In this document: one piece after another, positions 419 through 15,213 of the stretch
How the letters are laid out: every line of letters starts with the position of its first letter
Position numbering within the stretch: the first letter of the stretch is position 1
Notes under the pieces: model-generated
Seen by the model: the letters and a program-made list of their open reading frames with translations, nothing else
Told to the model about the DNA's origin: nothing
Database searches by the model: none
Origin: Spirochaetales bacterium
GTDB taxonomy: Bacteria > Spirochaetota > Spirochaetia > DSM-2461
DNA: 64,000 nt
Direction of reading: 5' to 3'
NCBI GenBank assembly: GCA_016936555.1
Contig: JAFGXR010000058.1
Coordinates: 1 to 64,000 of the forward strand
Program-made: the position numbers and the translations under genes

Positions 419-709
419 GTGAAAATATTTAAAGGAAAATACATGATACTCTTTATTTATGTGGGCTGTCTTATGGGGTTTCTCCTGTTGGGAGCCATAC
501 GGTTTATCAAGGGTCCGGAGCTGAGCGACCGCATCCTCTCGCTGGACACCATGACCATTCTGGTGACTTCGCTCCTCGTCATACTTTCGATCATCCTCGA
601 CAAAGCCATCTATCTCGATGTGGCCATGATCTTCGGAGTTGTCAGCTTCGTGGAAGTCATTGTCTTCGGCCGTTTCCTCGAAAAGGAGGGTCACAGTGAC
701 AGCCACTGA
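419..709 (+). CDS. MrpF/MnhF-like antiporter subunit (MbxB-like) of membrane-bound oxidoreductase
   Basis: 96 aa, three hydrophobic segments, 'GPELSDRILSLDTMT' MrpF signature; first gene of a tightly packed operon. Start may be internal at the second Met. Confidence 0.85.
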   Translation: MKIFKGKYMILFIYVGCLMGFLLLGAIRFIKGPELSDRILSLDTMTILVTSLLVILSIILDKAIYLDVAMIFGVVSFVEVIVFGRFLEKEGHSDSH

Positions 710-1049
710 TATCCTCGCCCTTGCCGCATATATTTTTATGGGATTCGGTGTCCTGACTTTCGGATTAAGCATTATCGGAATCCTCAGAATGCCCGACAGC
801 TACACCCGGATTCATGCGGGAACCAAAGCGTCGACCATGGGAACCATTCTGATACTCCTGGGAACCATGTTTCTCAAACCGCTCTGGATTCCGAAACTCA
901 TTCTCCTCGGGTTTTTCATACTGGCGACGAGCCCGATTTCCTCATCGATCCTGGTCAAAGGATCCTACATCGGAAAAAGCCCGATGTTTACCAAGAAGCC
1001 GTCAAAGGACTACCGGAAGGAACTGCGCGACAAAGGGGAGCCCTCATGA
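696..1049 (+). CDS. MrpG/MnhG-like antiporter subunit (MbxC-like)
   Basis: GTG start at 696 after AAAAGGAGGG; 'GILRMPDSYTRIHAGTKASTMG' is a typical MnhG motif. Confidence 0.88.
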   Translation: MTATDILALAAYIFMGFGVLTFGLSIIGILRMPDSYTRIHAGTKASTMGTILILLGTMFLKPLWIPKLILLGFFILATSPISSSILVKGSYIGKSPMFTKKPSKDYRKELRDKGEPS

Positions 1050-1303
1050 TGATTTATTTTTCCATGCTGGTTCTGTTCATACTCATGAATGTGACGGCTC
1101 TTATGATGATTAAAGAAAAAAGCCTTTTTTCCGCTGTCGCCGCCCTTTCTTTTATCGGACTGCTGGCTTCAGTCGTTTTCTTTCTCCTCGGCGCGCCCGA
1201 TGTGGCACTCACCGAAGCGGCCATGGGTTCCGGCCTGACCAGCCTCGTCTTCGTCGTTGCCATCAGAAACACCAGAAGCCAGGTGGAGGATATCAATGAG
1301 TAG
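1046..1303 (+). CDS. DUF4040/MbhD-like subunit (C-terminal MrpA fragment-like; MbxD-like)
   Basis: 'FFLLGAPDVALTEAAMGSGLTSLVFVVAI' matches the MbhD/MrpA motif; ATGA overlap with the preceding gene. Confidence 0.85.
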   Translation: MMIYFSMLVLFILMNVTALMMIKEKSLFSAVAALSFIGLLASVVFFLLGAPDVALTEAAMGSGLTSLVFVVAIRNTRSQVEDINE

Positions 1304-2018
1304 ACTTATCGTCCCGGTCAAAAAGATTTTTATTCTTCTCCTTCTTCTCGCTCTCTCCTTCAGCGCGTTGTGGATCTTTTTCTCCGCACCGGCCGCTGCG
1401 GAGAGAATCGGAGATCATTACATATCGATCAATGGTTCGGAAATGGGCGCCGCCAATATCGTCACCGCCGTCCTCGGAGGCTTCAGGGGGCTCGATACAC
1501 TGGGAGAGGTCACCATTCTGTTTCTCTCCACAACGGGAATCGGCCTGATCCTCTCCATGGGGGGACAGTATTTCCGCTGGCTCCAGTTCCGCCCCCACGC
1601 CGTTCTGACGGCGGCCATCCCCTATCTGTTTACGGCCATCGTTTTTTACGGCGTCTATATTATCGTTCACGGTCACCTCTCTCCGGGAGGCGGTTTCCAG
1701 GGGGGAGCCGTTATCGCCACGGGTTTCATGCTCCTCTTCTTTACCGATTCGGACCATATGATCAAAAAGAAGGCGATCTATATCAGCGAATCCCTTTCGG
1801 GGCTCTCCTTTGTGATTCTCGGAGTCCTCGGGCTTGTGCTGGCGGGGAGCTTCCTGATGAACTTTCTCCCCCATTCGGTCCGCGATACGGGCCGTCTGCT
1901 CAGCGCGGGAACGCTGCCCCTTCTCTCTCTGTTTATCGGAATCAAAGTGGGAGCGGAACTCTCCGGACTGGCACAGAGCCTGATCGGTCGGAAAGAACAC
2001 AAGGAGGTGGACAAATGA
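1296..2018 (+). CDS. MnhB-domain (MbhE+MbhF fused, MbxF-like) antiporter subunit
   Basis: Start set to ATG at 1296; C-terminal 'YIIVHGHLSPGGGFQGGAVIATGFM' is the MnhB signature. Confidence 0.87.
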   Translation: MSRLIVPVKKIFILLLLLALSFSALWIFFSAPAAAERIGDHYISINGSEMGAANIVTAVLGGFRGLDTLGEVTILFLSTTGIGLILSMGGQYFRWLQFRPHAVLTAAIPYLFTAIVFYGVYIIVHGHLSPGGGFQGGAVIATGFMLLFFTDSDHMIKKKAIYISESLSGLSFVILGVLGLVLAGSFLMNFLPHSVRDTGRLLSAGTLPLLSLFIGIKVGAELSGLAQSLIGRKEHKEVDK

Positions 2019-2386
2019 TGGACTATTTCAACAGCGAAGCTGCGCTGACCCACCTGATGATGGCGGGGATTCTCTCCCTGGTCGTCATCGGGCTCTATGG
2101 GATTCTCACCAGAAAAAACCTGATCAAGATTTTTCTCTCTCTCGGCGTCGTCGAAACAGCAGTGAACATACTCATCGTCGCTCTTCCCTACAGAAAAGGC
2201 GGCGTCGCCCCGATTCTGACAGGTCAGGGAATGGAGGGTTTTCTCGACCCCGTTCCCCAGGCTCTGGTCCTGACGTCCATCGTTATCGGGCTGGCCATTA
2301 CGGCGCTCGGACTGGTTATGGCTGTGAAGTTCTATCAGCACGAAGGCCATCTGAATATCAGAAAAATGAATGGATTAAAGAGGTAA
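2015..2386 (+). CDS. MrpC/NuoK-like subunit (MbxG-like)
   Basis: ATG at 2015 after AAGGAGG, ATGA overlap; 'IGLYGILTRKNLIKIFLSLGVVETAVNIL...DPVPQALVLTSIVIGLAITALGL'. Confidence 0.9.
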   Translation: MMDYFNSEAALTHLMMAGILSLVVIGLYGILTRKNLIKIFLSLGVVETAVNILIVALPYRKGGVAPILTGQGMEGFLDPVPQALVLTSIVIGLAITALGLVMAVKFYQHEGHLNIRKMNGLKR

Positions 2387-2388
2387 TA

Positions 2389-3825
2389 ATGGTATCGACA
2401 ATATGGTTTATCGCTCTGCCGCTCGGTCTGGCCTTTATTCTGCCATTCCGGGGACTGGGCCACACAAAACGGGATCTGACCATTATCCCTCTGGTTCTGA
2501 CAATTGTTCTCGGGGGGCTGCTCTTCCTGTTCCGGTTGGCGGTTACTTCTCCGGTTCTCGAGGGTTTTGTTCTCGACCCGCCTCTGGGCATCAGCTTCCG
2601 GATGGGGGCTACGGAATTTCTGTTCCTGATGATTGTGATCGGTTCGGCCTTTCTTATCGCCCTGAATATCTATGGGGAGAAAAATGACATTTTCAAGGGC
2701 TATCAGTTTCCCCTGATTTTTTCACTCTTTCTCACCGGTGCCATAGGAATCATTCTGACCGGCGATCTTTTCAATCTCTTTATATTCTGGGAGATTCTCT
2801 CCATCGCCGCTTACTTGCTCACAACGCTCGAAGGAAAGAGCCGCAGTTTCGAGGGGGGGATCAAATACCTTCTCACCGGAGCTCTCTCATCGGTATTTAT
2901 TCTGATCGCCGTGTCTCTGATTTACTACTCGGCGGGAACCATGGACATGGTGGAACTGGGCAGACTGATCCCGGCTCTGCCCTCCGGATTTAAAGCTCTG
3001 ATTTTTCTCTGCCTTTTTATCGGGTTCGCCATTGAAGCGGAAATCTTTCCCCTCAATCTCTGGGCGCCCGATGTTTTCGAAGCATCTGAAAGCCGGGCCG
3101 GCGGACTTTTTTCATCAATCGCCGTAAAAACCGCCGCTTTCGCCCTTCTCAGGCTCTTCTTCGTGCTGTTCGGAGGGGCGGAAATAGCGGGGTATTCCTT
3201 TTTTACGGTTCTCCTGGTACTCGCCCTGGCCACCCTGATCATTGCGGAGTTCGCCGCCTTTCATCAGTCCAATCTGAAACGAATGCTCGGCTATTCTTCT
3301 ATCGGGCAGGTGGCGCTGGCCCTAACCGCCCTTTCACTGGCGACGGAAAGCGCTTTGACAGCGGGTCTCTTTCATCTGCTGAACCACAGCCTCATCAAGG
3401 TTCTCCTCTTTTCGCTGGCCGCCTTCTTCATCAGAAAAGCGGGAAGCGAATCGATCGCCGATTTCAAAGGTATGGGCCGGAAATTTCCCGTCGCCGGTCT
3501 CTTCTTCACAATCGGAGCCCTGGCCGTCGCGGGATTTCCCCCCTTCAGCCCTTTCGCCAGCAAAATGGCCATTCTGAAAGCGCTGATGGACGGCGGACAC
3601 TTCATCGTTCTCACGGGCATTCTCGTCGCCACAGTCGTCGAGGTGGGATACTACTTCAAGGTGATTCAGGTTCTCTATGCGCCTGTGGAAAAAACGGAAA
3701 AGGAAAAAATCAAACCGATGGTCCTCTTTTCCTGGTTTGTACCCGCAGCCCTGCTGACCGGTCTGGGAATCTATCCCTCTGTCATTATGAAATATATCAG
3801 CCTCGCCGCAGGCGCGCTGTTCTAA
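2389..3825 (+). CDS. MrpD/NuoN-like proton-conducting membrane transporter (MbxH-like)
   Basis: 478 aa multi-TM protein; 'LFNLFIFWEILSIAAYLL' and 'HLLNHSLIKVLLF' antiporter-like motifs. Confidence 0.92.
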   Translation: MVSTIWFIALPLGLAFILPFRGLGHTKRDLTIIPLVLTIVLGGLLFLFRLAVTSPVLEGFVLDPPLGISFRMGATEFLFLMIVIGSAFLIALNIYGEKNDIFKGYQFPLIFSLFLTGAIGIILTGDLFNLFIFWEILSIAAYLLTTLEGKSRSFEGGIKYLLTGALSSVFILIAVSLIYYSAGTMDMVELGRLIPALPSGFKALIFLCLFIGFAIEAEIFPLNLWAPDVFEASESRAGGLFSSIAVKTAAFALLRLFFVLFGGAEIAGYSFFTVLLVLALATLIIAEFAAFHQSNLKRMLGYSSIGQVALALTALSLATESALTAGLFHLLNHSLIKVLLFSLAAFFIRKAGSESIADFKGMGRKFPVAGLFFTIGALAVAGFPPFSPFASKMAILKALMDGGHFIVLTGILVATVVEVGYYFKVIQVLYAPVEKTEKEKIKPMVLFSWFVPAALLTGLGIYPSVIMKYISLAAGALF

Positions 3826-3835
3826 GGGGTTTTCC

Positions 3836-5701
3836 ATGATTCAAGGAAAATTAACACTGATATTACTTCTTCCCATGGTTTCGGCTCTGGCTGTCTTCTT
3901 TCTGGGAACACATAAAATTATCAGAGAACTATTGTCCATAGTTTCTCTGGCACTGCTTACGGGATTACTGCTGATGAGAATAGTTTCTCCTGTCAGCGAT
4001 GATTTTACCTGGCAGTACATGCCGGGCTTTTTCACTCTCAGTTTTTCTTTAAGCTCTTTCGGCCTGCTCTTCGCCCTGATCGCGGCTATCAGCGGACTGC
4101 TGAAATCCTTTGCCTCCTGGGGGATCAACTCAAAGGGATATCACGCCCTCTTCCACCTGATGATGGGGGGGCTGATGATACTCCTGAGCGCAGGTGACTA
4201 CATCTCCTTCTTTCTGGGATGGGAGATCATGACCTGGTCCAGCTTTATGCTCTTCAACAATTTTTCCTCAGCCGATGATCCCATCGAAAAATCACAGGAT
4301 ACGGGCTTTCTTTTTATCACGCTCTCCCTTATTTCGGCTCTGCTGATGCTCGGAGTTCTCTTCTTTCTTTACAACCGGACGGGAAGCATGAATATCGCCG
4401 ACGGCGTCGCCTGGCTCCATGGAGTCAAGGGTCTTCCCTCGTGGATTCCCGGACTGCTGCTGATGAGCGCCTTTTTCCTGAAAAGCGGACTCCTTCCCTT
4501 TCACGTCTGGGTCCCCGGGACCTACCGGGAAGCGCCCCACACCTTTACGGCCTTTCTATCAGCGGCCCTTTCCAAAGTGGGGATCTACGCCTTTATCCTG
4601 TTCTTTCTCCCTTTTTCCCTGAATGAGGGATCGGGACAGATATCCTATCTCATCGCCTGGATCGGCGCTATCACGGCGACGGTAGCCACTTTCAAGGCCA
4701 TCGAACAGAATGATATGAAAGGGCTTCTCGCCTATTCCTCCATCGGACAGATGGCCTATGTCTTCACAGCTATGGCCGTCGGTTCTTCGCTGGCCATGGG
4801 CGGAGCGCTCTTCCAGATGGTCAACCACAGCCTGATCAAACTCCTCCTCTTTTTCATCGTGGCGGGCATCATCGAGAGAACCGGTAAAACACGGTTCGAC
4901 CAGCTCGGCGGATTGATCTACAAAATGCCCTTCTCCTTTATCGGCGTGCTCGTCGGCATTATCGCTCTGGCGGGAATGCCCCCCTTGAGCGGGTTCTACG
5001 GAAAGTGGATGATTTACACTTCGCTGATCGAAAAGGGGTGGCTGCTGGTTCTGACCGGCATCGTCCTTCCCTCGACGGCGGCTTTTATCTACTGTTACAA
5101 ACTGATTTACGGTATTTTCCTCGGTCACCCGACGGAAGTGAATCCCGAAGAGGCGAAAGAGATTTCTCCCCGCTACCGGGTTCCCTCCGGACTTCTGATG
5201 GCCTCCATCGTCCTTCTCGGACTTTTCCCGGGGCTGATTCTGAAGCCGGTCAATGTTCTTCTCTCCGACTTGGGGATGGAAACACTGGCCCTCACGAGTC
5301 AGGGCAGCCTCAACGCCGCATCCGGATCGGTCAGCGGTTTTATGGTTATGAATGTCTTCGGAGGAGTTTTTGCAGTGATCCTCATTCTTCTTTCGCTCTT
5401 TGGAAAGAAAGCGCCGACCCGCAACCTCCACAGGCTCGATATAGCCTATGCGGGGGAACTTCCCACAGAACAAACGCCTCTCCACTACGGACGGGGCCTG
5501 GGACATGAAGTCAAACGGGTCGCCATCGCCGGAGCGATCGTGAAAAGAAGCCTGACGGAAAAATATATGAAAATCGGAAACCAGCTCGGCGGGATTCTGG
5601 AACATGTCCGGGGATTCTATCCCGGGAACGGCCAGGTATCGCTTATTATGACAATGGTCGGAGCAGCCGCCGTGGCTCTCCTGATCGGACTCAAGGGGTA
5701 A
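3836..5701 (+). CDS. Second antiporter-like subunit (NuoL/HyfB family; MbxH'-like)
   Basis: 621 aa multi-TM; 'FFLGWEIMTWSSFMLF', 'KSGLLPFHVWVPGTYREAPHTFTAFLSA', 'MVNHSLIKLLLFF'. Confidence 0.9.
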   Translation: MIQGKLTLILLLPMVSALAVFFLGTHKIIRELLSIVSLALLTGLLLMRIVSPVSDDFTWQYMPGFFTLSFSLSSFGLLFALIAAISGLLKSFASWGINSKGYHALFHLMMGGLMILLSAGDYISFFLGWEIMTWSSFMLFNNFSSADDPIEKSQDTGFLFITLSLISALLMLGVLFFLYNRTGSMNIADGVAWLHGVKGLPSWIPGLLLMSAFFLKSGLLPFHVWVPGTYREAPHTFTAFLSAALSKVGIYAFILFFLPFSLNEGSGQISYLIAWIGAITATVATFKAIEQNDMKGLLAYSSIGQMAYVFTAMAVGSSLAMGGALFQMVNHSLIKLLLFFIVAGIIERTGKTRFDQLGGLIYKMPFSFIGVLVGIIALAGMPPLSGFYGKWMIYTSLIEKGWLLVLTGIVLPSTAAFIYCYKLIYGIFLGHPTEVNPEEAKEISPRYRVPSGLLMASIVLLGLFPGLILKPVNVLLSDLGMETLALTSQGSLNAASGSVSGFMVMNVFGGVFAVILILLSLFGKKAPTRNLHRLDIAYAGELPTEQTPLHYGRGLGHEVKRVAIAGAIVKRSLTEKYMKIGNQLGGILEHVRGFYPGNGQVSLIMTMVGAAAVALLIGLKG

Positions 5702-5708
5702 TCAGGCT

Positions 5709-6614
5709 ATGTTATTCACCATATTCAACAGCCTTCTGGCTGTTCTGCTCACCTATTCCATGGGGATGCTCTACTACGGTTTCTACCGGATCGGAAACGC
5801 CCGGATCCACCGCCGCGTCGGGCCGCCTCTCTGGCAGAACGTCATCGACAATATCAAGCTCTTCGCCAAGCGGGAGGCTCCCGGACACGGCATCATGTTC
5901 CACCTGGGACCGGTCATTATGACGGCGGGAACCATCACGTCCATGCTCTTCGTCCCCTTTCTGAAGGACAGCGCCTGGCTCCAGGGATTCTCCTCCTACG
6001 GAAACCTCATCCTGCTCATCTATCTGATGGTCGTCGGCCCTCTGGGCAACGCTCTCGCCGTCGGTGTGAGCGGCGTTCCTTTCGGAGTCATGGGCGTGAC
6101 ACGGGGTCTCACCAGACTCATCGGCCTGGAAGTTCCTTTTTTCCTCTCCGTCGCGTTGCTTATGAGCGGCAGCGGAACCATCTCCATCAGCGAAATCATG
6201 ATGGCACAGGACAGTTTTAGCAACTGGAACATGATGGCCCATCCCGCGGCCTTTATCGTCTCCCTTTTCTCCTTCGTGGGGATGATGGGAGCCAGCCCCT
6301 TCGATGTGGTCGGTGCGCCCGTGGAGGTCTACTCGGGACCCCAGGCGGAATTCGGAGGGAAATACCTCGGCTTTCTCGCCGCCCAGAGAGTCATGTTCTC
6401 CATGGTCAAGCTCATCCTCTGGGTGGACCTTTTCCTGGGGGGAGCCACCAATGTCTTTATTCTCATGGCAAAAAGTTTTGCCCTGTTTTTCTTCTATTTC
6501 ATCGTGGGAGCCGCGTTTCCCCGATTCAAAACGGAACAGGCCGTCGACTTCATGCTGAAGCTTCCCCTGATCATCGGGATCGGCGCCGTTCTTGTGCGTT
6601 TCTGGAGTCTGTAA
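5709..6614 (+). CDS. NuoH/HyfC-like membrane subunit (MbxM-like)
   Basis: 'RRVGPPLWQNVIDNIKLFAKREAP' and 'GASPFDVVGAPVEVYSGPQAEFGGKYLG' are NuoH-family motifs. Confidence 0.92.
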   Translation: MLFTIFNSLLAVLLTYSMGMLYYGFYRIGNARIHRRVGPPLWQNVIDNIKLFAKREAPGHGIMFHLGPVIMTAGTITSMLFVPFLKDSAWLQGFSSYGNLILLIYLMVVGPLGNALAVGVSGVPFGVMGVTRGLTRLIGLEVPFFLSVALLMSGSGTISISEIMMAQDSFSNWNMMAHPAAFIVSLFSFVGMMGASPFDVVGAPVEVYSGPQAEFGGKYLGFLAAQRVMFSMVKLILWVDLFLGGATNVFILMAKSFALFFFYFIVGAAFPRFKTEQAVDFMLKLPLIIGIGAVLVRFWSL

Positions 6615-7223
6615 ATGGATAATTTGAACAAGAAAGATAAAGCTCAGTTGAAAGAGCTGAAGTCGCCGATGGCCGTCGTGGACTGGGCCGTGAACTGGTT
6701 CCGCAAGCAGAGCATCTTCATGCTCGCCTACGGAACGGGATGCGGAGCGATTGAAATTCCCCCCACCGTCACGGCGCGCTACGATGCGGAGCGCTTCGGC
6801 GTCAGAGGGGCCGCGACCCCGAGACAGGCCGACGTCATCGTCCTCTCCGGTTACCTGGCCGTCAAAACTTTGAAAAGGGTCATCCGCACCTACGAGCAGA
6901 TGCAGGAACCCAAATACGTTATCGCTCTCGGTTCCTGCCCCATCAACGGCGGCATGTACTGGGACAGCTACAACACGATCAAGCAGCTGGACCGCTACCT
7001 TCCCGTCGATGTCACCGTGGCGGGCTGCATGCCCCGTCCCGAAGCGGTGCTCGAAGGCTTTATGGCCCTCAAGGATAAAATCCAGAGAGGCGAAGCCGAA
7101 GGGGCCCGGGACTACAGGGACAATATCGAAAAGTACAAAAACAACCAGAAAGAGATATTCGGCGACAAAATGCTCCCCGGCTACACCTGCGACTGGTACT
7201 TCTCCGACGGAGGTTCATTCTGA
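6615..7223 (+). CDS. NuoB-like Fe-S small subunit (MbxJ-like)
   Basis: 'GTGCGAIEIPPT', 'RQADVIVLSG', 'YVIALGSCPINGGMYWDSY', 'DVTVAGCMPRPEAVL'. Confidence 0.92.
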   Translation: MDNLNKKDKAQLKELKSPMAVVDWAVNWFRKQSIFMLAYGTGCGAIEIPPTVTARYDAERFGVRGAATPRQADVIVLSGYLAVKTLKRVIRTYEQMQEPKYVIALGSCPINGGMYWDSYNTIKQLDRYLPVDVTVAGCMPRPEAVLEGFMALKDKIQRGEAEGARDYRDNIEKYKNNQKEIFGDKMLPGYTCDWYFSDGGSF

Positions 7224-7789
7224 TGACAGAGACAATCGACAATCTGCTCGAACGGATCGGGCGGAATTTTCAGATAACCGGACAGGAAGTGAAAAAGGCC
7301 GGTCTGGCCGCTCTGCACTGTTCGCAGGAACAGCTTCACGGCGTTCTGATCTACCTGAAAGAAGTGGAGAAATTCGACACTCTGACCATGATCGGCTGTG
7401 CCGACTGGATCGAGGACGACTATTTCGAGCTCTCCTATATGGCCTATTCCTTCACCACCTTTTTTACGGTGATGGTAAAGATCCGCGTCTCCCGCGACGG
7501 ATCTTCGGTTCCGACAGTCGAGGGGATATGGCGGCAGGCCCGGACCTTCGAACGGGAAATCCACGAAATGTTCGGCGTCGACTTCCCCGGTAACACCCGA
7601 CTGAAGGAGTTCTTCCTGGAAAACTGGCAGGGCATGCCCCCGATGAAACGGGATTTCGACACGGTCCAGTTCGTCAAAGACCACTACAAGCTGCGGGAAG
7701 AGGGACGGGAAGGCGCCTGCAATGTCTCGGTGGAGCGGAAAAAGCGCATCGACGCCAAAAAACTGGAACTGAAAAAGGAAGGGGAATAA
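7223..7789 (+). CDS. NuoC-like 30 kDa subunit (MbxK-like)
   Basis: 'ARTFEREIHEMFGVDFPGNTRLKEFFLENWQGMPPMKRDF' is the complex I 30 kDa signature. Confidence 0.9.
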   Translation: MTETIDNLLERIGRNFQITGQEVKKAGLAALHCSQEQLHGVLIYLKEVEKFDTLTMIGCADWIEDDYFELSYMAYSFTTFFTVMVKIRVSRDGSSVPTVEGIWRQARTFEREIHEMFGVDFPGNTRLKEFFLENWQGMPPMKRDFDTVQFVKDHYKLREEGREGACNVSVERKKRIDAKKLELKKEGE

Positions 7790-8898
7790 TGGCACAGGAT
7801 ATTATCACGATTTTCCATGGTCCCCAGCACCCCGGAATCACGGGAAACATGTCTGTTGAGTTGGACCTTCTGGGCGAAACCATAAAAAGAGCCGAAACCC
7901 ATGTGGGATACCTCCATCGAGGTTTCGAGAAAATGATAGAACGGCGGACCGTTCTCCAGGCCTTTACAATCGTCTGCCGGATCTGCGTTCCCGAACCGGA
8001 CCCCAACGAGGAGAACTTCGCCCGCGGCGTGGAAGAGCTTATGGGACTGGAAGTTCCCGAGAAAGCGAAATGGCTCCGGACCATGGTCCTCGAAATGGCC
8101 CGTCTCCAGGCCCAGATGCTCTGGTTTGCCGGACAGGGCGGAAGTCTCGGACACTACATTTCCCCCCAGTGGGCCGTGGCCGACAGAGACCTGATCCTCG
8201 ACCTTTTCGAAGAGCTCACCGGCGGACGGGTCTACCATATGTATATAACGCCCGGCGGGGTCAGAAGGGACCTGCCCGAGGGATTCCTCGGCCGGCTGGG
8301 CCATTTCCTGGACTATCTGGAAAGCCGTCTCCCCGAGTACGACAATATGCTTCTCCGCAACCCGGTCTTTCTGGAAAGAGCCAGAGGCGTGGGCATCATC
8401 GATCCCGCGACAGCCCGGGAATACGGTGTCGTCGGCCCGAACCTCAGAGCCTGCGGATTCATGAACGACATCCGGAAAGACGAGCCCTATGAAATGTACG
8501 GCGAAGTCGATTTTATCGTTCCCACGGAAACAAGCGGCGATGTCTACGGCAGAGCCATGGTCCGCCGGGCGGAAATCGAACAGTCCATCTCCATCCTCCG
8601 GCAGATCATCAGAAGAATGCCCGCTGAGAAAGAGATCATGGCGGTTCTTCCGAAAAACCACAGGAAATGGGAAGTGCCCAAAGGCGATACCCTGGTTAAA
8701 ACCGAATCGGCCCGCGGTGAGTACAGCTATTACATGGTCGGCGACGGAACGGACAAGCTCAGGCGTGTTCAGGTCAAAGGGCCTTCGGCGGTCCATGCCA
8801 TCACCCTGCTCGAGGAAATGCTGGTCGATTCCCAGCTCTCCGATGTGGCCATGATCATGAACTCGCTGGGAACCAATCCCCCGGAAATAGAGAGGTAG
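7789..8898 (+). CDS. NuoD / [NiFe]-hydrogenase large-subunit-like protein (MbxL-like)
   Basis: 'HGPQHPGITGNMSVELDLLGETIKRAETHVGYLHRGFEK'; 'AFTIVCRICVPEPD'; no C-terminal CxxC. Confidence 0.92.
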   Translation: MAQDIITIFHGPQHPGITGNMSVELDLLGETIKRAETHVGYLHRGFEKMIERRTVLQAFTIVCRICVPEPDPNEENFARGVEELMGLEVPEKAKWLRTMVLEMARLQAQMLWFAGQGGSLGHYISPQWAVADRDLILDLFEELTGGRVYHMYITPGGVRRDLPEGFLGRLGHFLDYLESRLPEYDNMLLRNPVFLERARGVGIIDPATAREYGVVGPNLRACGFMNDIRKDEPYEMYGEVDFIVPTETSGDVYGRAMVRRAEIEQSISILRQIIRRMPAEKEIMAVLPKNHRKWEVPKGDTLVKTESARGEYSYYMVGDGTDKLRRVQVKGPSAVHAITLLEEMLVDSQLSDVAMIMNSLGTNPPEIER

Positions 8899-8903
8899 AC
8901 AGT

Positions 8904-9329
8904 ATGAAGATCGATATTAAAGGTATCTGGGGAGCTCTGAGCTCTCTTAAATATCTCTTTCAGCCTCCCGGGACCCTGCGCTACCCCGATGTGAAAAAGG
9001 AAGCCGCCGATGGATACCGGGGCTTTCACGACAACGACCTTTCAAAGTGCATCGGATGCGGGATGTGCGAAGATATCTGCATGAACCTGGCCATCGATAT
9101 GGTCAAGCCGAAAAGCGAAGCTTACCTCAATGCTAAAAACGGATCGGGACTGATTCCCCGGCTCGACTACGGACGGTGCTGCTGGTGTTCGCTCTGTACC
9201 GATGTCTGTCCGGTCAACTCGCTGAAGCTGACGAAAAACTACGTATACGTCTCGGAAGATATGAACAGATTCATCTACACGCCCGGAGAGGAAAAACTGG
9301 GCAAAAGAGAAAAGGAGACCGTGAAATGA
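8904..9329 (+). CDS. NuoI-like 2x[4Fe-4S] ferredoxin subunit (MbxN-like)
   Basis: 'CIGCGMCEDIC' and 'CCWCSLCTDVCP' cluster motifs. Confidence 0.92.
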   Translation: MKIDIKGIWGALSSLKYLFQPPGTLRYPDVKKEAADGYRGFHDNDLSKCIGCGMCEDICMNLAIDMVKPKSEAYLNAKNGSGLIPRLDYGRCCWCSLCTDVCPVNSLKLTKNYVYVSEDMNRFIYTPGEEKLGKREKETVK

Positions 9330-9790
9330 GAATTCTGAAGTGGACAGCCGCGCTCTTCGTCATGTGGATCGCCATGACTCTGAGTCTTGATACAGAAGAA
9401 CTGATTGCCGGACTGGCTCTCTCCCTTATGATGGCGGTCATCAGCACGAAATATTTCGCCCCCCGGAGCAGAGGGATGATCAATCCCTTTAAGGCGTTAA
9501 AATACCTCGCCGTTCTGATGGTGAATCTCTATAAATCCAATGTGGATATCGCGCGGAGGGTTCTCGACCCGAAGCTGCCCATCAATCCGGGCATCGTAAA
9601 AATCTCCACAAAGCTGGAAAGCCCCTTCAGAAAGCTGATTCTGGCCAACAGCATAACCCTGACGCCGGGGACGGTGACTCTCGATGTGGACGGTCAGGAC
9701 CTCTACGTCCACTGGATCGATGTGGTTACTGATGATCCGGAAAAAGCAGGAGAGCTGATCAAAGGGGATTTTGAGAGGGTCTTGAGTTAA
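9326..9790 (+). CDS. MrpE/MnhE-like antiporter subunit (MbxA-like) at 3' end of operon
   Basis: ATGA overlap with previous gene; 'ANSITLTPGTVTLDVDGQDLYVHWIDV' is the MnhE signature. Confidence 0.9.
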   Translation: MRILKWTAALFVMWIAMTLSLDTEELIAGLALSLMMAVISTKYFAPRSRGMINPFKALKYLAVLMVNLYKSNVDIARRVLDPKLPINPGIVKISTKLESPFRKLILANSITLTPGTVTLDVDGQDLYVHWIDVVTDDPEKAGELIKGDFERVLS

Positions 9791-9802
9791 AGGAATGAAT
9801 AT

Positions 9803-9828
9803 CCGGCTTCCGGGAATCAGGAAGCCGG
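9803..9828 (+). terminator. Hairpin downstream of the Mbx-like operon
   Basis: CCGGCTTCC-GGGAATCA-GGAAGCCGG perfect 9 bp stem; no strong T-tract. Confidence 0.5.
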
Positions 9829-9876
9829 AAAACTCTTATATTGATAATCGGTTGAAATTGCAGTATCGTAAAAATC

Positions 9877-10278
9877 ATGAAGAGCGATAGCATTGCGGAT
9901 AAAATAAAATCCCTCGTTAAGAATAATGACAGATTCACACTTGTAGAGCTCTACGGTTCCGCAGCCACCGGAAGAATGAATGAACAAAGTGATATCGATA
10001 TTGCTGTTGGTTCCGATTCAGGATTGACGAATGATGATTGCCTTTCTCTATCACTGCAGCTTTCCGAGCTGTTTAACAGGGAAGTTTCGGTTATTAATCT
10101 GGAGAAAATGGAAGGTTTAATCCTTTCGGAAGTTTTGACCAAAGGCATAACTATCAAAAACAGTTCTCCTCTGTACAAGTCGCGCCACCTGATCCGTATG
10201 TACGAGTATAATGAAGATATTTTACCCTTTCAGCAATTGGCTTTCGAGAAAAAACGGCAGAGGTACCTCAATGGTTAA
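9877..10278 (+). CDS. mntA: MntA-type nucleotidyltransferase antitoxin
   Basis: GSX10DXD motif intact: 'GSAATGRMNEQSDID'; overlaps downstream HepT-like gene. Confidence 0.85.
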   Translation: MKSDSIADKIKSLVKNNDRFTLVELYGSAATGRMNEQSDIDIAVGSDSGLTNDDCLSLSLQLSELFNREVSVINLEKMEGLILSEVLTKGITIKNSSPLYKSRHLIRMYEYNEDILPFQQLAFEKKRQRYLNG

Positions 10279-10684
10279 CCCTCTGATATCCAGTAAAGTA
10301 GATTCCCTGATTCGGTGTCTGGAAAGAATCGAATCCAAGAAACCGGCTCAAATTGAAAATCTTATTGAAGATTACGACTTGCAGGATATTATTTCTGTAA
10401 ATCTCGAAAGAGCTATCCAAATTTCCGTTGATATCGCTGCGATCATCATTGCGGAAAAAGGATTGAAGACAGCTCAAACAATGAGCAGTGCCTTCAAGGC
10501 TCTTTCCGATAGTAAAATCATCCCCGAAGAGTTATCACTGAAATTACAGAAATCAGTGGGCTTCCGGAATATCTCTGTCCACGAATATTGTTCCATCGAC
10601 TGGGAAATAGTTTTTGATATAATTCACAATCATCTGGTGAACTTCAGGGATTTTATCAGAAGTGTTACACTCTCTTTAGATTAA
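10271..10684 (+). CDS. hepT: HepT-like (DUF86) ribonuclease toxin
   Basis: RX4HXY motif intact: 'RNISVHEY'; ATG at 10271 overlaps mntA by 8 nt. Confidence 0.85.
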   Translation: MVNPLISSKVDSLIRCLERIESKKPAQIENLIEDYDLQDIISVNLERAIQISVDIAAIIIAEKGLKTAQTMSSAFKALSDSKIIPEELSLKLQKSVGFRNISVHEYCSIDWEIVFDIIHNHLVNFRDFIRSVTLSLD

Positions 10685-10723
10685 TCTTGTTCTATTGATT
10701 CCATAAGCCTCAATCCGAAAGAT

Positions 10724-11641
10724 TTAATTATACTTCTTCTCCTTGTTTCTCTTATCCCGGATCTCATCGAGCAGCTCGAGTGTAATACGGGAAACCCCGC
10801 GATTTTCCGCATCTTCCAGAATCCCCTTCAAAGCTGTATTGAGAAATATCTTCGGAATCCTTTTGAGCCTGATGAAGCACTCTTCATCCCACTGCATCTG
10901 CTCATTCAATTTCAAAGCTGCAGCGCGGACCACATCCTCACCTACGCCTTTGTCTTTCGGAATCGGAAATCTGAGAGGTTTCCGGAAAGGGGAGATCCAG
11001 AATTCCGCATTATTCCTGAACCCGTAATCAACCGGAAAAGCCGGCATCTGCGAACTGCCTTCAATCAGAGCTTTTTTCCATTTGGATCTGAGAAGAATCT
11101 TATCGATTTTCAGAATAAAAATGGCCCCGTGTTCCGATGTTATCCCGTTAAACCGGTTATAGGGAGGATGATAGACGACACCATCGCCATCGGGCGGAAT
11201 TGTTTCAGAATCATCCCAGGTGCACTCAAAAACCTGTTCGGCTTCCGAAATGATCAGAGGAAATGATTCATCGACCTTTTCAACAGCCCGGAGCCCTTTC
11301 TGGAGATGAAAAATGGTTTCCCTCATTTTCTCGGAAGTCTCCTCCCCGGGAAAACCGAGCCGGACAATCTCTTTCAGGTACCTTTTTTTATCGGGCAGAA
11401 AATTGATAGCGCATTTCCTGTCCCGCAGAATATTCTGCGCCGTATTGCTCGAATTCCTCGCCCCCAGAAACATTCCGAAATAATCTTTTTCTGCAATATA
11501 ATAGGGAAAACAGAGGCTATAGGCCCCGAGGTTCGTTTCTCCCTCAGGACTCAAAGTGCTGATTAGAACCGTCGGCATGGGGAAAAACGAAGAGGTCTGA
11601 TAAAAATTGTTCAGTATTTCAATTTCTTCAAAGTGTGTCAT
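10724..11641 (-). CDS. Flavin reductase-like (FMN-binding split barrel) protein
   Basis: 'PMPTVLISTLSPEGETNLGAYSLCFPYYIAEKDYFGMFLGARNSSNTAQNI'; start set to internal Met 'MTHFEEIEIL'. Confidence 0.75.
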   Translation of the reverse strand: MTHFEEIEILNNFYQTSSFFPMPTVLISTLSPEGETNLGAYSLCFPYYIAEKDYFGMFLGARNSSNTAQNILRDRKCAINFLPDKKRYLKEIVRLGFPGEETSEKMRETIFHLQKGLRAVEKVDESFPLIISEAEQVFECTWDDSETIPPDGDGVVYHPPYNRFNGITSEHGAIFILKIDKILLRSKWKKALIEGSSQMPAFPVDYGFRNNAEFWISPFRKPLRFPIPKDKGVGEDVVRAAALKLNEQMQWDEECFIRLKRIPKIFLNTALKGILEDAENRGVSRITLELLDEIRDKRNKEKKYN

Positions 11642-11724
11642 ACTGAATATTGTAACAGTCCTGTTTGAAATTGAAAGAGTTATCTTCGCTGAAGACCTTT
11701 CGGGCAACCATAGGAGGATAAGAT

Positions 11725-12507
11725 ATGGAAAACCTCTACCTCTATTTTTCAGGAACGGGAAATACCAAATACGTTATAGGCAAATTTGCTGAACTCTACG
11801 AACGGGGAAATCATTACAGCATCCATTCGATCGAACACAGTGATATCGATTTTTCCCGCATCATCGGCGAAGCCGAAAACATCGTGCTGGCCTACCCCAT
11901 CCACGACAGCATGCTGCCCTTTATCGTTCAAGAATTCCTGGAGAGCCATATAGGGTCTTTCAAAGGAAAAAATCTCACGACAATCTGCACCCAGCTTTTA
12001 TTCAGCGGAGACGGAGGGGCTCTCCCCTTCTACATCCTGAAAAAATCCGGCGTTAAGCATCTCCACAGCATTCATATCAATATGCCGAGCAACCTGACCG
12101 ATGTTAATATCTTTTTCAACAAACCGCTTGCCGAAACAGCCCGATCATATGTCAAAGCTGATCGAAAAATCGCTTTAGCCGTTGATACGATCAGGTGCGG
12201 GGGAATATGCAGGGACGGAAGAAAATGGTTTTCCCGTTTTTCCGGATTTATTCTTCAGCGGGCCTGGGGCAAAGCCATGATGGTGAAGCTCAGAAACTCT
12301 GTGAAAATCAGCAGCGATTGCATCTTATGCCAGAAATGCGTTCAGATCTGTCCTGTGAAAAACCTGGAGATCAGAGAAAACAGAGTCGGACAGCAGGGCC
12401 GATGTACTCTTTGCTACCGCTGCGTCAACGAATGTCCCGTCCGGGCTATTTCCATCTTTATGAAAAGCAAACCGAAAATCCAGTACTCGAGAAAAGACTA
12501 TAACTGA
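11725..12507 (+). CDS. EFR1-type flavodoxin-ferredoxin fusion
   Basis: N-terminal 'LYFSGTGNTKYV' flavodoxin P-loop; C-terminal 'CILCQKCVQICPVKNL' and 'CTLCYRCVNECPVRAI' clusters. Confidence 0.85.
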   Translation: MENLYLYFSGTGNTKYVIGKFAELYERGNHYSIHSIEHSDIDFSRIIGEAENIVLAYPIHDSMLPFIVQEFLESHIGSFKGKNLTTICTQLLFSGDGGALPFYILKKSGVKHLHSIHINMPSNLTDVNIFFNKPLAETARSYVKADRKIALAVDTIRCGGICRDGRKWFSRFSGFILQRAWGKAMMVKLRNSVKISSDCILCQKCVQICPVKNLEIRENRVGQQGRCTLCYRCVNECPVRAISIFMKSKPKIQYSRKDYN

Positions 12508-12639
12508 ACCATGAGCTCGATCTCCTGGCTCGATGGACAGCGGACTTCGCCGCCATGACCAATCGGAGGGATTTGGAAAGCCACGCCCTCCGGTATCGGG
12601 AGGACGCGGTATGGATAGGGGGAGAACTCGTGAACGATT

Positions 12640-13227
12640 CTAGGAATCTCGCCTTTCAAGCTCGGCCATAAGATCGTGAAACTCCACGCCGGCCGCTTCA
12701 AGCAGCACGAGGAGATGATAAATCAGATCCGCCGATTCATACACGATATCTTCTCTGGAGACAGCCAGAATCAATTCAATGGCTTCCTCCCCTACCTTTT
12801 TGCGGATCTTCTCAAGACCTTTCTCGAAGAGATGTGTCGTGTAGGAGCCTGAAGGCATCTCCTTTTTCCGCCGGGCTATAGTCTCCGCCAGACGGTAGAG
12901 GATTCTTGACTCGCTTTCCTTCTCCGCATTCAAAGCCGTGTTTTCGTGAAGCTCCGGATCTACATCCTCTCCCGAAAGCTCACAGGCGACATCGGAACTC
13001 CCGGCTGGCAGCTCGGCGGCAAAGAACCCCTTTTCCTCTTTCAGAGAGAGATAAACCGGATCCCCCTCCCAGGGGAGAATACGTCCCGTCTCGGGGTGGA
13101 CAATCCAGAGAATTTTCGTCTCGACACTCTTGGAAAAGGCCTTCCGGTTCATAAGCGCGCCCGATGTCACACCGCCTTCAATATTTACGACAACAGGTAA
13201 TACCGTTCCATCTGCCATATTCATCAA
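12640..13227 (-). CDS. hisE: Phosphoribosyl-ATP pyrophosphohydrolase (HisE) with degenerate HisI-like N-terminus
   Basis: C-terminal 'GSYTTHLFEKGLEKIRKKVGEEAIELILAV...ESADLIYHLLVLLEAAGV' is HisE/MazG-like; N-terminus 'GALMNRKAFSKSVETKILWIVHPETGRILPWEGDPV' resembles HisI without its metal ligands. Confidence 0.75.
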   Translation of the reverse strand: MMNMADGTVLPVVVNIEGGVTSGALMNRKAFSKSVETKILWIVHPETGRILPWEGDPVYLSLKEEKGFFAAELPAGSSDVACELSGEDVDPELHENTALNAEKESESRILYRLAETIARRKKEMPSGSYTTHLFEKGLEKIRKKVGEEAIELILAVSREDIVYESADLIYHLLVLLEAAGVEFHDLMAELERRDS

Positions 13228-13238
13228 CTCCTCAATTA

Positions 13239-14234
13239 TCAGTTTTTAACTATCCACCGGATCACTTTCGAGGCAAAGAAGGGAATAACCTCCCCGTAAG
13301 CCTCCGGGACAATCCAGCTTTCTTCAGCCAGTTCAATTCTCTCCTCATTAAGAGGCATTCCGTAAAATTCCGCTCCGAACCGCGAGACAAAATCCTCAAG
13401 CATAGGGAGTTTGCCGCAGCCATCAAAAAATTCCGCCAGCAGCGCCAGCGAGACCGGGGCCGAGTAGGAGCCCGCCGCCCCCTCCTGTTTTTTTGCGGCG
13501 CTATGAGGTGCACTGTCCGAACCGAAAAAGAATTTTCTGTTACCTTCCAGCACGACTTTCTGAATAGCCTTTCTGTCTTCCGGTCCTTTCAGAACGGGTT
13601 TGCAGAAATTGTGGGGATTCAGGGCACCTCCGATCACATCGTCCAGGGTCAGCAGAAGATGATGCACCGTAATGGTTCCGGCCAGATTATCGGGACCCTC
13701 AGCGACCGCCTGAATCCCCTCGGCGCTGGAGAGGTGTTCAAAAACGACCTTCAGACCGGGAAATTTCCGGCAGATTTCCAGAATTTCGGGAATATAGGCT
13801 TTCTCCCTGTCCAGAGAATAAACCGAAGGATCCTCCCCGTGTATGCTCAGAACCAGCTGTTCCTCTTCCATCACTTTCAATAGACCGGCAATATCTCTCC
13901 AATCGGTTATTCCGTCAGTCGAATTTGTCGTCGCTCCGGCGGGATAGAGCTTTCCCGCTATAGCACCGGCTTTTTTAAGCGCCCGCACATCGCTCTCCTT
14001 CATGTTCTTCAGAAGCTTGAATGTCATAAGCGGATTAAAGCCGGGATCGATCTCAACAATCTGCCTGCGGTATTCCTCCAGAGTCGAAGCGGAATCAATA
14101 GGCGGAATGGTATTGGGCATGACAACAGCCCTGGAAAAATAGGCGGAACAGTGGGGAACCGTCATTTTCAGCAGTTCACCCTGTCTCAAATGGATATGGA
14201 AATCATCGGGTTTTCGTATTTCAATTCTCTTCAT
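13239..14234 (-). CDS. pyrC: Dihydroorotase
   Basis: 'DDFHIHLRQGELL', 'AGAIAGKLYPAGATTNS', 'FFFGSDSAPHS' (metal ligands and carboxylated Lys). Confidence 0.93.
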   Translation of the reverse strand: MKRIEIRKPDDFHIHLRQGELLKMTVPHCSAYFSRAVVMPNTIPPIDSASTLEEYRRQIVEIDPGFNPLMTFKLLKNMKESDVRALKKAGAIAGKLYPAGATTNSTDGITDWRDIAGLLKVMEEEQLVLSIHGEDPSVYSLDREKAYIPEILEICRKFPGLKVVFEHLSSAEGIQAVAEGPDNLAGTITVHHLLLTLDDVIGGALNPHNFCKPVLKGPEDRKAIQKVVLEGNRKFFFGSDSAPHSAAKKQEGAAGSYSAPVSLALLAEFFDGCGKLPMLEDFVSRFGAEFYGMPLNEERIELAEESWIVPEAYGEVIPFFASKVIRWIVKN

Positions 14235-15213
14235 CTTTATAACTCCAGATCGTTTCGCCTTTCAGGTTGATATAACGGGCGTATCCGTCTTCAATGACGA
14301 GAGCCAGGCCGAACCGGAAATCATCAGCATAATCGTAATGGGGTTCAATAACGGATTCGCCTTCCTTGTTGATAAAGCCGAGCTTGTCCTCTTTTCCCAG
14401 GCGCACTCTGGCCAGCCCGTCGGAAAAATCCCCGGCAAAACTGTATTGCGGCTCGATCCGGACTTCTCCCTTCTTATCAATATATCCGCCTCTGCCCTCG
14501 GACACGATAAGAGCCAGGCCCTCGGAAAAATCTTTTGAATAGAGGAACTGCGGCTCAATGATGTATTCGTTTTTCTTATTGATATAGCCCCCTTTGTCAT
14601 CGGAAACGACAAGAGCCAGACCTTCGGAAAAATCTCCGGCAAAATCATATTGCGGAACGATAACTTCTTCCCCTTTATTATTTATAAAACCGACCTTCCC
14701 GTCCCGGCTGATCCGGGCCATACCTTCATTGAAAGCCGTAGCGCTTTTCCAGTCGCCGCCGAAAAGTTTTTCATTTTTTTTATTGATATAAAAGTGATCG
14801 TCTCCCGTAACGACCGAAGCAGCGTTTTCCTGAAAATCCCCCGCTCTGTCATAGATAAAGGGAATGACGATTTCCCCTTTCCGGTTGATATAACCGCATT
14901 TGCCATCGCTCACCACCATGGCCAGACCTTCGCTGAAGGATGAAGCTTTATCATAGATAAAAGGAATAAGGATCTCATCCTGATCATTGATGAATCCCCC
15001 TTTCCCTTCATTTACAGCCAGAGAAAGACCCTCGGAAAAACTCAATGCCATTTCATAACGGGGTTCTATAACGACTTCCCCTTTCCGGTTGATAAACCCG
15101 GTTCTCCCTTTGACTGTCACGGGAAACAATCCGCTGTTCCCTTTACTGCAGCTTCCCGCTAAAATCAGAATGAACAGGGATAGAAAAATAACACCGGCAA
15201 TTCTACAGGTCAT
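14221..15213 (-). CDS. WG (KWG)-repeat lipoprotein
   Basis: Lipobox 'LAGSC' and repeated 'GYINKKGE..I.P.YD.A.DFSEGLA.V' units throughout. Confidence 0.88.
   Translation of the reverse strand: MTCRIAGVIFLSLFILILAGSCSKGNSGLFPVTVKGRTGFINRKGEVVIEPRYEMALSFSEGLSLAVNEGKGGFINDQDEILIPFIYDKASSFSEGLAMVVSDGKCGYINRKGEIVIPFIYDRAGDFQENAASVVTGDDHFYINKKNEKLFGGDWKSATAFNEGMARISRDGKVGFINNKGEEVIVPQYDFAGDFSEGLALVVSDDKGGYINKKNEYIIEPQFLYSKDFSEGLALIVSEGRGGYIDKKGEVRIEPQYSFAGDFSDGLARVRLGKEDKLGFINKEGESVIEPHYDYADDFRFGLALVIEDGYARYINLKGETIWSYKDEEN

What the first reader, a model, noticed from the sequence alone, without database searches (positions are those of the whole stretch)
419..9790. Complete 13-gene Mbx/Mbs-type complex with the mrpE gene moved to the operon's 3' end
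Seen: thirteen same-strand, mostly overlapping genes in the order MrpF, MrpG, MbhD-like, MnhB (E/F fused), MrpC, MrpD, second antiporter-like H', NuoH-like, NuoB-like, NuoC-like, NuoD-like, NuoI-like, MrpE. Established knowledge: this matches the archaeal/Thermotoga mbxABCDFGHH'MJKLN set, including the H/H' duplication and E/F fusion that separate Mbx from Mbh, except that the MrpE-like (MbxA) gene is last instead of first. Inference: an ion-pumping ferredoxin-oxidising complex in a spirochaete, with unknown electron acceptor.
Basis: partly seen in the sequence, partly recalled or inferred. Interest (0 to 1): 0.7.

Follow-up and report, generated by a model that had tools for sequence, protein, structure and literature searches.

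The report
Spirochaete sulfane-reductase-type complex, mrpE gene last
A spirochaete carries a complete 13-gene set for an ion-pumping, ferredoxin-using relative of respiratory complex I; its odd gene order, together with loss of an NAD(P)H-binding half of one subunit, marks a distinct lineage of this enzyme shared with sulfur bacteria of two other phyla.

Summary
Window 419-9790 carries 13 tightly packed + strand genes, and mrpE is last. Every core subunit tested matches the Pyrococcus MBS structure (6u8y) best, ahead of complex I, MBH and Mrp. The L tree puts the complex in the MBS/MBX family, apart from group 4 hydrogenases and Nuo. MBS's defining proximal-cluster signature is present: three Cys ligands in J, and no quinone His/Tyr in L.

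mrpE-last is neither ordinary nor unique. Of 72 loci where both traits could be scored, 57 are mrpE-first with a ~600-760 aa NuoI-GltD fusion. Fifteen are mrpE-last with a short NuoI. The single apparent exception is a tandem operon. The fifteen form one clade (100/100) nested inside mrpE-first/GltD forms: four spirochaetes, seven Campylobacterota and four Chromatiaceae. Moving mrpE and losing the NAD(P)H-flavin half of NuoI therefore mark one derived lineage. I found no description of it in the papers searched.

The host genome also has two GltD-bearing paralogues, FeFe hydrogenases and Rnf/Nqr.

Most likely it is an Na+/H+-pumping ferredoxin:sulfane (polysulfide/disulfide) oxidoreductase. 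Family and architecture are shown; electron acceptor and direction are inferred. New variant of a known kind.

The parts
419..709 (+). mrpF-like (MbxB); GTG start
   Evidence: Pfam PF04066 54 bits
696..1049 (+). mrpG-like (MbxC); GTG start, overlaps previous gene
   Evidence: Pfam PF03334 72 bits
1046..1303 (+). MbhD-like (MbxD)
   Evidence: Pfam PF13244 72 bits
1296..2018 (+). fused MbhE + MnhB (MbxE/F)
   Evidence: Pfam MbhE at residues 33-78 and MnhB at 104-222 of one 240 aa protein
2015..2386 (+). mrpC-like (MbxG)
   Evidence: Pfam PF00420 89 bits
2389..3825 (+). antiporter-like subunit MbxH (MrpD-like)
   Evidence: Best PDB hit 6u8y_H 251 bits, next 146; E135, E216, K247, H329 and K392 kept
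3836..5701 (+). second antiporter-like subunit MbxH' (621 aa)
   Evidence: Best PDB hit 6u8y_X 203 bits, next 128; E130, K216, K247 and K390 kept, H336 equivalent is Q327
5709..6614 (+). NuoH-like membrane anchor MbxM
   Evidence: Best PDB hit 6u8y_M 153 bits, next 56; D199, E206 and E214 kept, E104/E193 equivalents are V108/S196
6615..7223 (+). NuoB-like MbxJ; three conserved proximal-cluster Cys (C43, C108, C138), no Cys at the MbsJ C25 position (G40)
   Evidence: Best PDB hit 6u8y_J 222 bits, next 132; motif survey
7223..7789 (+). NuoC-like MbxK
   Evidence: Pfam PF00329 86 bits
7789..8898 (+). NuoD-like MbxL; keeps C63 and C66, both C-terminal NiFe Cys absent (LGTNPPEIER), quinone His/Tyr replaced by T18/V67
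   Evidence: Best PDB hit 6u8y_L 327 bits; complex I 231; MBH 129; trees
8904..9329 (+). NuoI-like MbxN, short form (141 aa, two 4Fe-4S), lacking the GltD half
   Evidence: Aligns to the first 139 of 611 positions of NCBIfam PRK13984 (147 bits against 94 for the best NuoI model); best PDB hit 6u8y_N
9326..9790 (+). mrpE-like (MbxA), at the 3' end
   Evidence: Pfam MNHE 140 bits; best PDB hit 6u8y_A 121 bits, MBH 75, Mrp 66; groups with MBX-type E
9802..9829 (+). 10-pair hairpin after mrpE, possible operon end (no strong T run)

Best explanation
The operon encodes a membrane-bound MBS/MBX-type complex. Reduced ferredoxin gives electrons to the two [4Fe-4S] clusters of the short NuoI-like subunit. 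They pass to a proximal [4Fe-4S] cluster in the NuoB-like subunit, held by only three cysteines. Its open iron reductively splits an S-S bond (polysulfide or another disulfide/sulfane substrate). The energy is passed through M and H/H' to pump ions, coupled to the Mrp-like Na+/H+ module (A-G, with MrpE as the outermost subunit). The operon belongs to a derived lineage in which NuoI has lost the GltD-like NAD(P)H half found in most bacterial relatives and in which mrpE has moved from first to last gene. The position of mrpE itself probably has no effect on the enzyme. Shown here: family membership, subunit set, three-Cys signature, lack of quinone and NiFe ligands, conserved ion-path residues, and the clade with its two linked traits. 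Inferred: ferredoxin as donor, sulfane sulfur as acceptor, direction, and Na+ coupling.
For: All seven tested core subunits have MBS 6u8y as best solved relative by wide margins. L groups with MbsL and bacterial relatives, outside complex I and group 4 hydrogenases (SH-aLRT 99; 100/100 against complex I). J has exactly the three ligand Cys in every one of about 110 relatives scored, and L lacks the complex I His/Tyr and the MBH Glu. These are the features that PMC7684303 ties to sulfane reduction by the proximal cluster. Ion-path residues are mostly kept. No NiFe hydrogenase over the cut-off in the genome. In Thermotoga maritima the MBX gene tested (mbxA) rises with S0 (PMC9431562). In strain 3DAC most MBS genes rise with S0 (PMC10356935). 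The mrpE-last clade is found in sulfur-cycle bacteria: Sulfurovum, Nitratifractor, Thiocystis, Thiorhodococcus.
Against: No sulfur-metabolism gene was recognised next to the operons of the clade whose flanks were identified, and no neighbour is shared across its lineages; most flanking genes were not identified. The three-Cys signature is equally present in the GltD-bearing forms, so it does not by itself separate acceptors. MbsL C385 is Asn in the window, though that Cys was shown not to be needed in Pyrococcus (PMC7684303). Two acidic MbsM residues (E104, E193) and the H' histidine are not kept. No bacterial member has been assayed biochemically in the papers read.
Confidence: 0.6

Rival explanations
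1. Ferredoxin:NAD(P)+ oxidoreductase: the complex works like the GltD-bearing paralogues and borrows a separate GltD/NfnB-like flavoprotein in trans.
For: 57 of 72 scored relatives carry the GltD half on NuoI. The host genome has two such paralogues. MBX was first proposed to make NADPH (PMC3035292, PMC6349859).
Against: The window NuoI ends where the GltD half would begin. In the clade mrpE follows NuoI directly, with no reading frame of GltD size between them. A GltD-like protein encoded elsewhere in these genomes was not searched for.
Confidence: 0.15
2. It runs in reverse in at least some hosts: ion-motive force drives electrons from sulfide or polysulfide uphill to ferredoxin, feeding CO2 or N2 fixation.
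For: The clade occurs in purple sulfur bacteria and in Sulfurovum/Nitratifractor. In the Riftia symbiont a putative Mrp-Mbx complex is co-expressed with the reverse TCA cycle, direction unknown (PMC11636981).
Against: The window host looks like an anaerobic fermenter with FeFe hydrogenases and Rnf/Nqr, where ferredoxin oxidation is the more useful direction. No direct evidence for direction.
Confidence: 0.15
3. A ferredoxin-dependent quinone reductase resembling complex I.
For: L and J score next best against complex I subunits, and the chamber in MBS is of complex I size (PMC7684303).
Against: Quinone-binding His38 and Tyr87 equivalents are T18 and V67, and the tandem Cys of NuoB is absent. 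The tree places it outside Nuo.
Confidence: 0.05
4. Group 4 NiFe hydrogenase (MBH-like).
For: Same overall architecture; L keeps one CxxC (C63/C66).
Against: C-terminal CxxC missing, MBH Glu21 absent, 327 against 129 bits, separate clade, H/H' pair rather than one H.
Confidence: 0.02
5. mrpE-last is an assembly error or an accident of this one genome.
For: The operon begins 418 bases from a contig edge, and sister operons in this genus are tandem and partly collapsed.
Against: Fifteen loci in three phyla, including one in a two-contig genome (G005), have the same order, and they form one clade by L (100/100).
Confidence: 0.01

Closest known systems
Pyrococcus furiosus MBS (membrane-bound sulfane reductase, PDB 6u8y, PMC7684303)
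   Same: 13 subunit types incl. H, H', fused E, NuoI without GltD half, three-Cys proximal cluster, no quinone or NiFe ligands.
   Different: Bacterial; L lacks the C385 equivalent but has an extra C63; J lacks C25; the L tree places it within a bacterial clade well away from MbsL. mrpE is last (mbsA is treated as first in the finding; archaeal gene order was not fetched).
Bacterial MBX with NuoI-GltD fusion (NCBIfam PRK13984 type), e.g. C119 and C97 of the same genome
   Same: Same complex family and subunit set; the three Cys of J.
   Different: mrpE first; NuoI carries a Fer4_20 + pyridine-nucleotide oxidoreductase half; in many, H and H' are one fused protein of about 1050 aa.
Thermotoga maritima MBX (PMC9431562)
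   Same: 13-subunit homologue of MBS; mbxA induced by S0.
   Different: Sequence and gene order not available here for comparison.
Putative Mrp-Mbx complex of the Riftia symbiont (PMC11636981)
   Same: MBX in a sulfur-oxidising gammaproteobacterium.
   Different: Subtype not established here; direction unknown there too.
MBH (group 4 NiFe hydrogenase, 6cfw)
   Same: Mrp-type membrane arm with a MrpE-like subunit.
   Different: NiFe site, one H subunit, four-Cys proximal cluster.

Membership tests
MBS/MBX (membrane-bound sulfane reductase / oxidoreductase) | L subunit groups with MbsL, apart from Nuo and group 4 hydrogenases | tested here: met
MBS/MBX (membrane-bound sulfane reductase / oxidoreductase) | Two antiporter-like subunits H and H', one fused E/F | tested here: met
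MBS/MBX (membrane-bound sulfane reductase / oxidoreductase) | Proximal cluster with three Cys ligands in J | tested here: met
   C43, C108, C138; match MbsJ C28, C93, C123. By sequence only; J also has a non-conserved C192 near its C-terminus
MBS/MBX (membrane-bound sulfane reductase / oxidoreductase) | Quinone His/Tyr (Nqo4 H38, Y87) and MBH Glu21 absent from L | tested here: met
   T18, V67
MBS/MBX (membrane-bound sulfane reductase / oxidoreductase) | Two of four NiFe cysteines kept in L (MbsL C85, C385) | tested here: inconclusive
   C85 equivalent C66 kept, C385 equivalent is N363 in the window but Cys in its clade; not needed for activity in Pyrococcus
MBS/MBX (membrane-bound sulfane reductase / oxidoreductase) | mrpE/mbxA as first gene | tested here: not met
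   Last in the window and all 14 clade members. Gene order is a usual trait, not one the enzyme depends on
MBS/MBX (membrane-bound sulfane reductase / oxidoreductase) | Ferredoxin-dependent polysulfide reduction with ion pumping | not testable with these tools
   needs biochemistry
Bacterial NAD(P)-linked MBX (NuoI-GltD) | GltD-like half on NuoI | tested here: not met
   141 aa NuoI, aligns only to positions 5-139 of PRK13984
Group 4 NiFe hydrogenase (MBH) | Both CxxC motifs of the NiFe site | tested here: not met
Respiratory complex I (Nuo) | Tandem Cys in NuoB and quinone His/Tyr in NuoD | tested here: not met

The most novel reading that the evidence does not exclude
The mrpE-last, GltD-free lineage is a functionally separate enzyme of the sulfur cycle. 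It interconverts ferredoxin and sulfane sulfur/sulfide directly, without pyridine nucleotides, and in Chromatiaceae and Campylobacterota it works in reverse to make reduced ferredoxin from sulfide with ion-motive force.
Probability: 0.2. Interest if true: 0.75.

Novelty: new variant of a known kind. Interest (0 to 1): 0.5.

Why it matters
MBS is regarded as the link between hydrogenases and complex I. Biochemical evidence in the papers read comes from Pyrococcus. The survey splits the bacterial relatives into a pyridine-nucleotide-linked majority and one derived, GltD-free lineage with a simple genetic tag (mrpE last), and shows three paralogues in one spirochaete. It names cultured hosts (Thiocystis minor DSM 178, Thiorhodococcus mannitoliphagus DSM 18266) where the open question of acceptor and direction in bacteria can be tested.

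Tried and rejected
mrpE acquired from a stand-alone Mrp operon: a first tree with one Bacillus MrpE hinted at this. With 23 MrpE from other (mostly stand-alone) Mrp operons of spirochaetes, the clade's mrpE stays inside the MBX-type E group (99/83) and away from 21 of them, so relocation of the same gene is preferred. The Bacillus sequence is a long branch that attaches to one Sulfurovum row.

Apparent exception L088 (mrpE after a NuoI-GltD gene): the two contigs C6 and C18 of G002 converge into the same mrpE sequence, so this is best read as the first gene of the next tandem operon.

Functional clue from neighbours: none shared across the clade.

NiFe hydrogenase identity: rejected. Loci from the genome collection could not be used as search centres, so Thermotogae and archaea were not surveyed and their gene order rests on published statements.
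Full report
OBSERVATION. The window starts at base 1 of contig C101 of a 4.7 Mb, 134-contig assembly. Thirteen + strand genes fill 419-9790 with gaps of -14 to +10 bases. Pfam gives the order MrpF, MrpG, MbhD, MbhE+MnhB in one protein, MrpC, H, H', M, J, K, L, N, MrpE. A ten-pair hairpin follows mrpE.

WHAT IT IS. The best solved relative of each of seven subunits tested is the corresponding chain of Pyrococcus MBS (6u8y). L scores 327 bits (complex I 231, MBH 129). J scores 222 (next 132), M 153 (next 56), H 251 (next 146) and H' 203 (next 128). N scores 77 (next 50) and MrpE 121 (MBH 75, Mrp 66). In an L tree of 125 rows all MBX-type rows plus MbsL form one group (SH-aLRT 99), with group 4 hydrogenases and NuoD outside. 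A careful tree of 55 rows rooted on complex I gives the same separation from Nuo.

ACTIVE-SITE SIGNATURE. PMC7684303 ties sulfane reduction in MBS to a proximal [4Fe-4S] cluster held by three Cys of MbsJ, and reports that the quinone residues of Nqo4 and MbhL Glu21 are absent. In the window, J has C43, C108 and C138 as ligand candidates, and the dispensable MbsJ C25 is Gly. L has T18 and V67 in place of Nqo4 His38 and Tyr87. It keeps C63/C66 but neither C-terminal NiFe Cys: N363 replaces MbsL C385, which was not needed for activity. About 110 relatives scored all keep the three J cysteines. In H, all five charged or His residues highlighted in MBS are kept; in H', four of five; in M, three of five.

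GENE ORDER SURVEY. I annotated 118 loci from two sources: whole spirochaete genomes and a scan of 84,980 species genomes. Where both mrpE position and full NuoI length can be read, 57 loci are mrpE-first with NuoI of about 590-760 aa, and 15 are mrpE-last with short NuoI. There is one apparent mrpE-last/long-NuoI locus, L088; it is best read as the junction of two tandem operons in a congener. The long form is NCBIfam PRK13984: NuoI fused to a GltD-like Fer4_20 + pyridine nucleotide oxidoreductase half. Short NuoI proteins of the clade match only the first ~130-139 positions of that model, and better than any NuoI model, in all four tested. That fits loss of the GltD half.

THE CLADE. The 15 mrpE-last loci are the window, three other spirochaetes of the same family (G005, G007, G010), seven Campylobacterota (titles: Campylobacteraceae, Sulfurovum, Nitratifractor) and four Chromatiaceae (two Thiocystis, Thiorhodococcus mannitoliphagus, an unnamed one). 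They form one clade by L, 100/100, nested in a 39-row group (100/100) whose other scored members are mrpE-first with GltD. The clade's mrpE sequences group together inside MBX-type E rather than with most spirochaete stand-alone Mrp. So one relocation of mrpE and one loss of GltD mark a single derived lineage. Because it is one event, the association of the two traits is descriptive, not statistical proof of a functional link. The tandem operons seen in G002 suggest a route: tandem duplication followed by deletion from the GltD half to the next mrpE would give exactly N-short followed by mrpE. This is inference.

CONTEXT. The same genome holds two more complexes, both with NuoI-GltD. C119 has mrpE first and a fused 1083 aa H-H'; C97 is cut at the contig end. 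It also has FeFe hydrogenases and Rnf/Nqr-type RnfD, and no NiFe hydrogenase over the cut-off. In G005 the mrpE-last complex is the only one found at E<=1e-30. No neighbour gene is shared across lineages of the clade, so the operon looks like a self-contained unit.

HOW IT LIKELY WORKS. Reduced ferredoxin to NuoI-like clusters, to the three-Cys proximal cluster, to S-S bond; coupling through M, H' and H to the Mrp-like Na+/H+ module. Steps shown: parts and residues. Inferred by homology: donor, acceptor, ion. Supporting physiology from relatives: mbxA of Thermotoga rises with S0 (PMC9431562), MBS of a thermophilic bacterium rises with S0 (PMC10356935). A Mrp-Mbx in the Riftia symbiont is co-expressed with the reverse TCA cycle, direction unknown (PMC11636981). 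In sulfur oxidisers the reaction may run backwards; this is open.

COMPARISON AND NOVELTY. It is a member of the MBS/MBX family on every sequence feature tested except gene order and one dispensable Cys. It is not a member of the GltD-bearing subtype. I found no paper describing the mrpE-last/GltD-free subtype in seven library searches, which cover only open-licence papers. Verdict: new variant of a known kind; the enzyme class is known, the lineage and its tag appear undescribed.

Noticed in passing
9877-10684: MNT/HEPT-type toxin-antitoxin pair (Polbeta nucleotidyltransferase + HepT-like) directly after the operon's hairpin.
   Followed up: partly
11725-12507: EFR1-family flavodoxin-ferredoxin protein (NCBIfam 148 bits), 2 kb downstream of the complex; a possible redox partner but not shared by other loci of the clade.
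   Followed up: partly
10724-11707 (-): 327 aa protein with no Pfam or NCBIfam match.
   Followed up: no
L051 (G000:C119) 4335-15100 and L052 (G000:C97): Two further MBX complexes in the same genome with NuoI-GltD fusions; C119 has H and H' fused into a 1083 aa protein; an ArsR-type regulator gene (L051:15325-15684) follows it.
   Followed up: partly
L088 / L233 / L070 (G002): Apparently tandem GltD-type MBX operons in a congener, with near-identical 5' ends collapsed in the assembly.
   Followed up: partly
L135, L139, L147, L148, L155, L168 (Thiomargarita and relatives): L subunit gene found without NuoI or several membrane-arm genes beside it; these MBX operons seem to be split.
   Followed up: no
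L112, L118, L127, L128: NuoI-GltD proteins of 749-763 aa with about 150 C-terminal residues beyond the GltD half, mostly without a Pfam match.
   Followed up: partly
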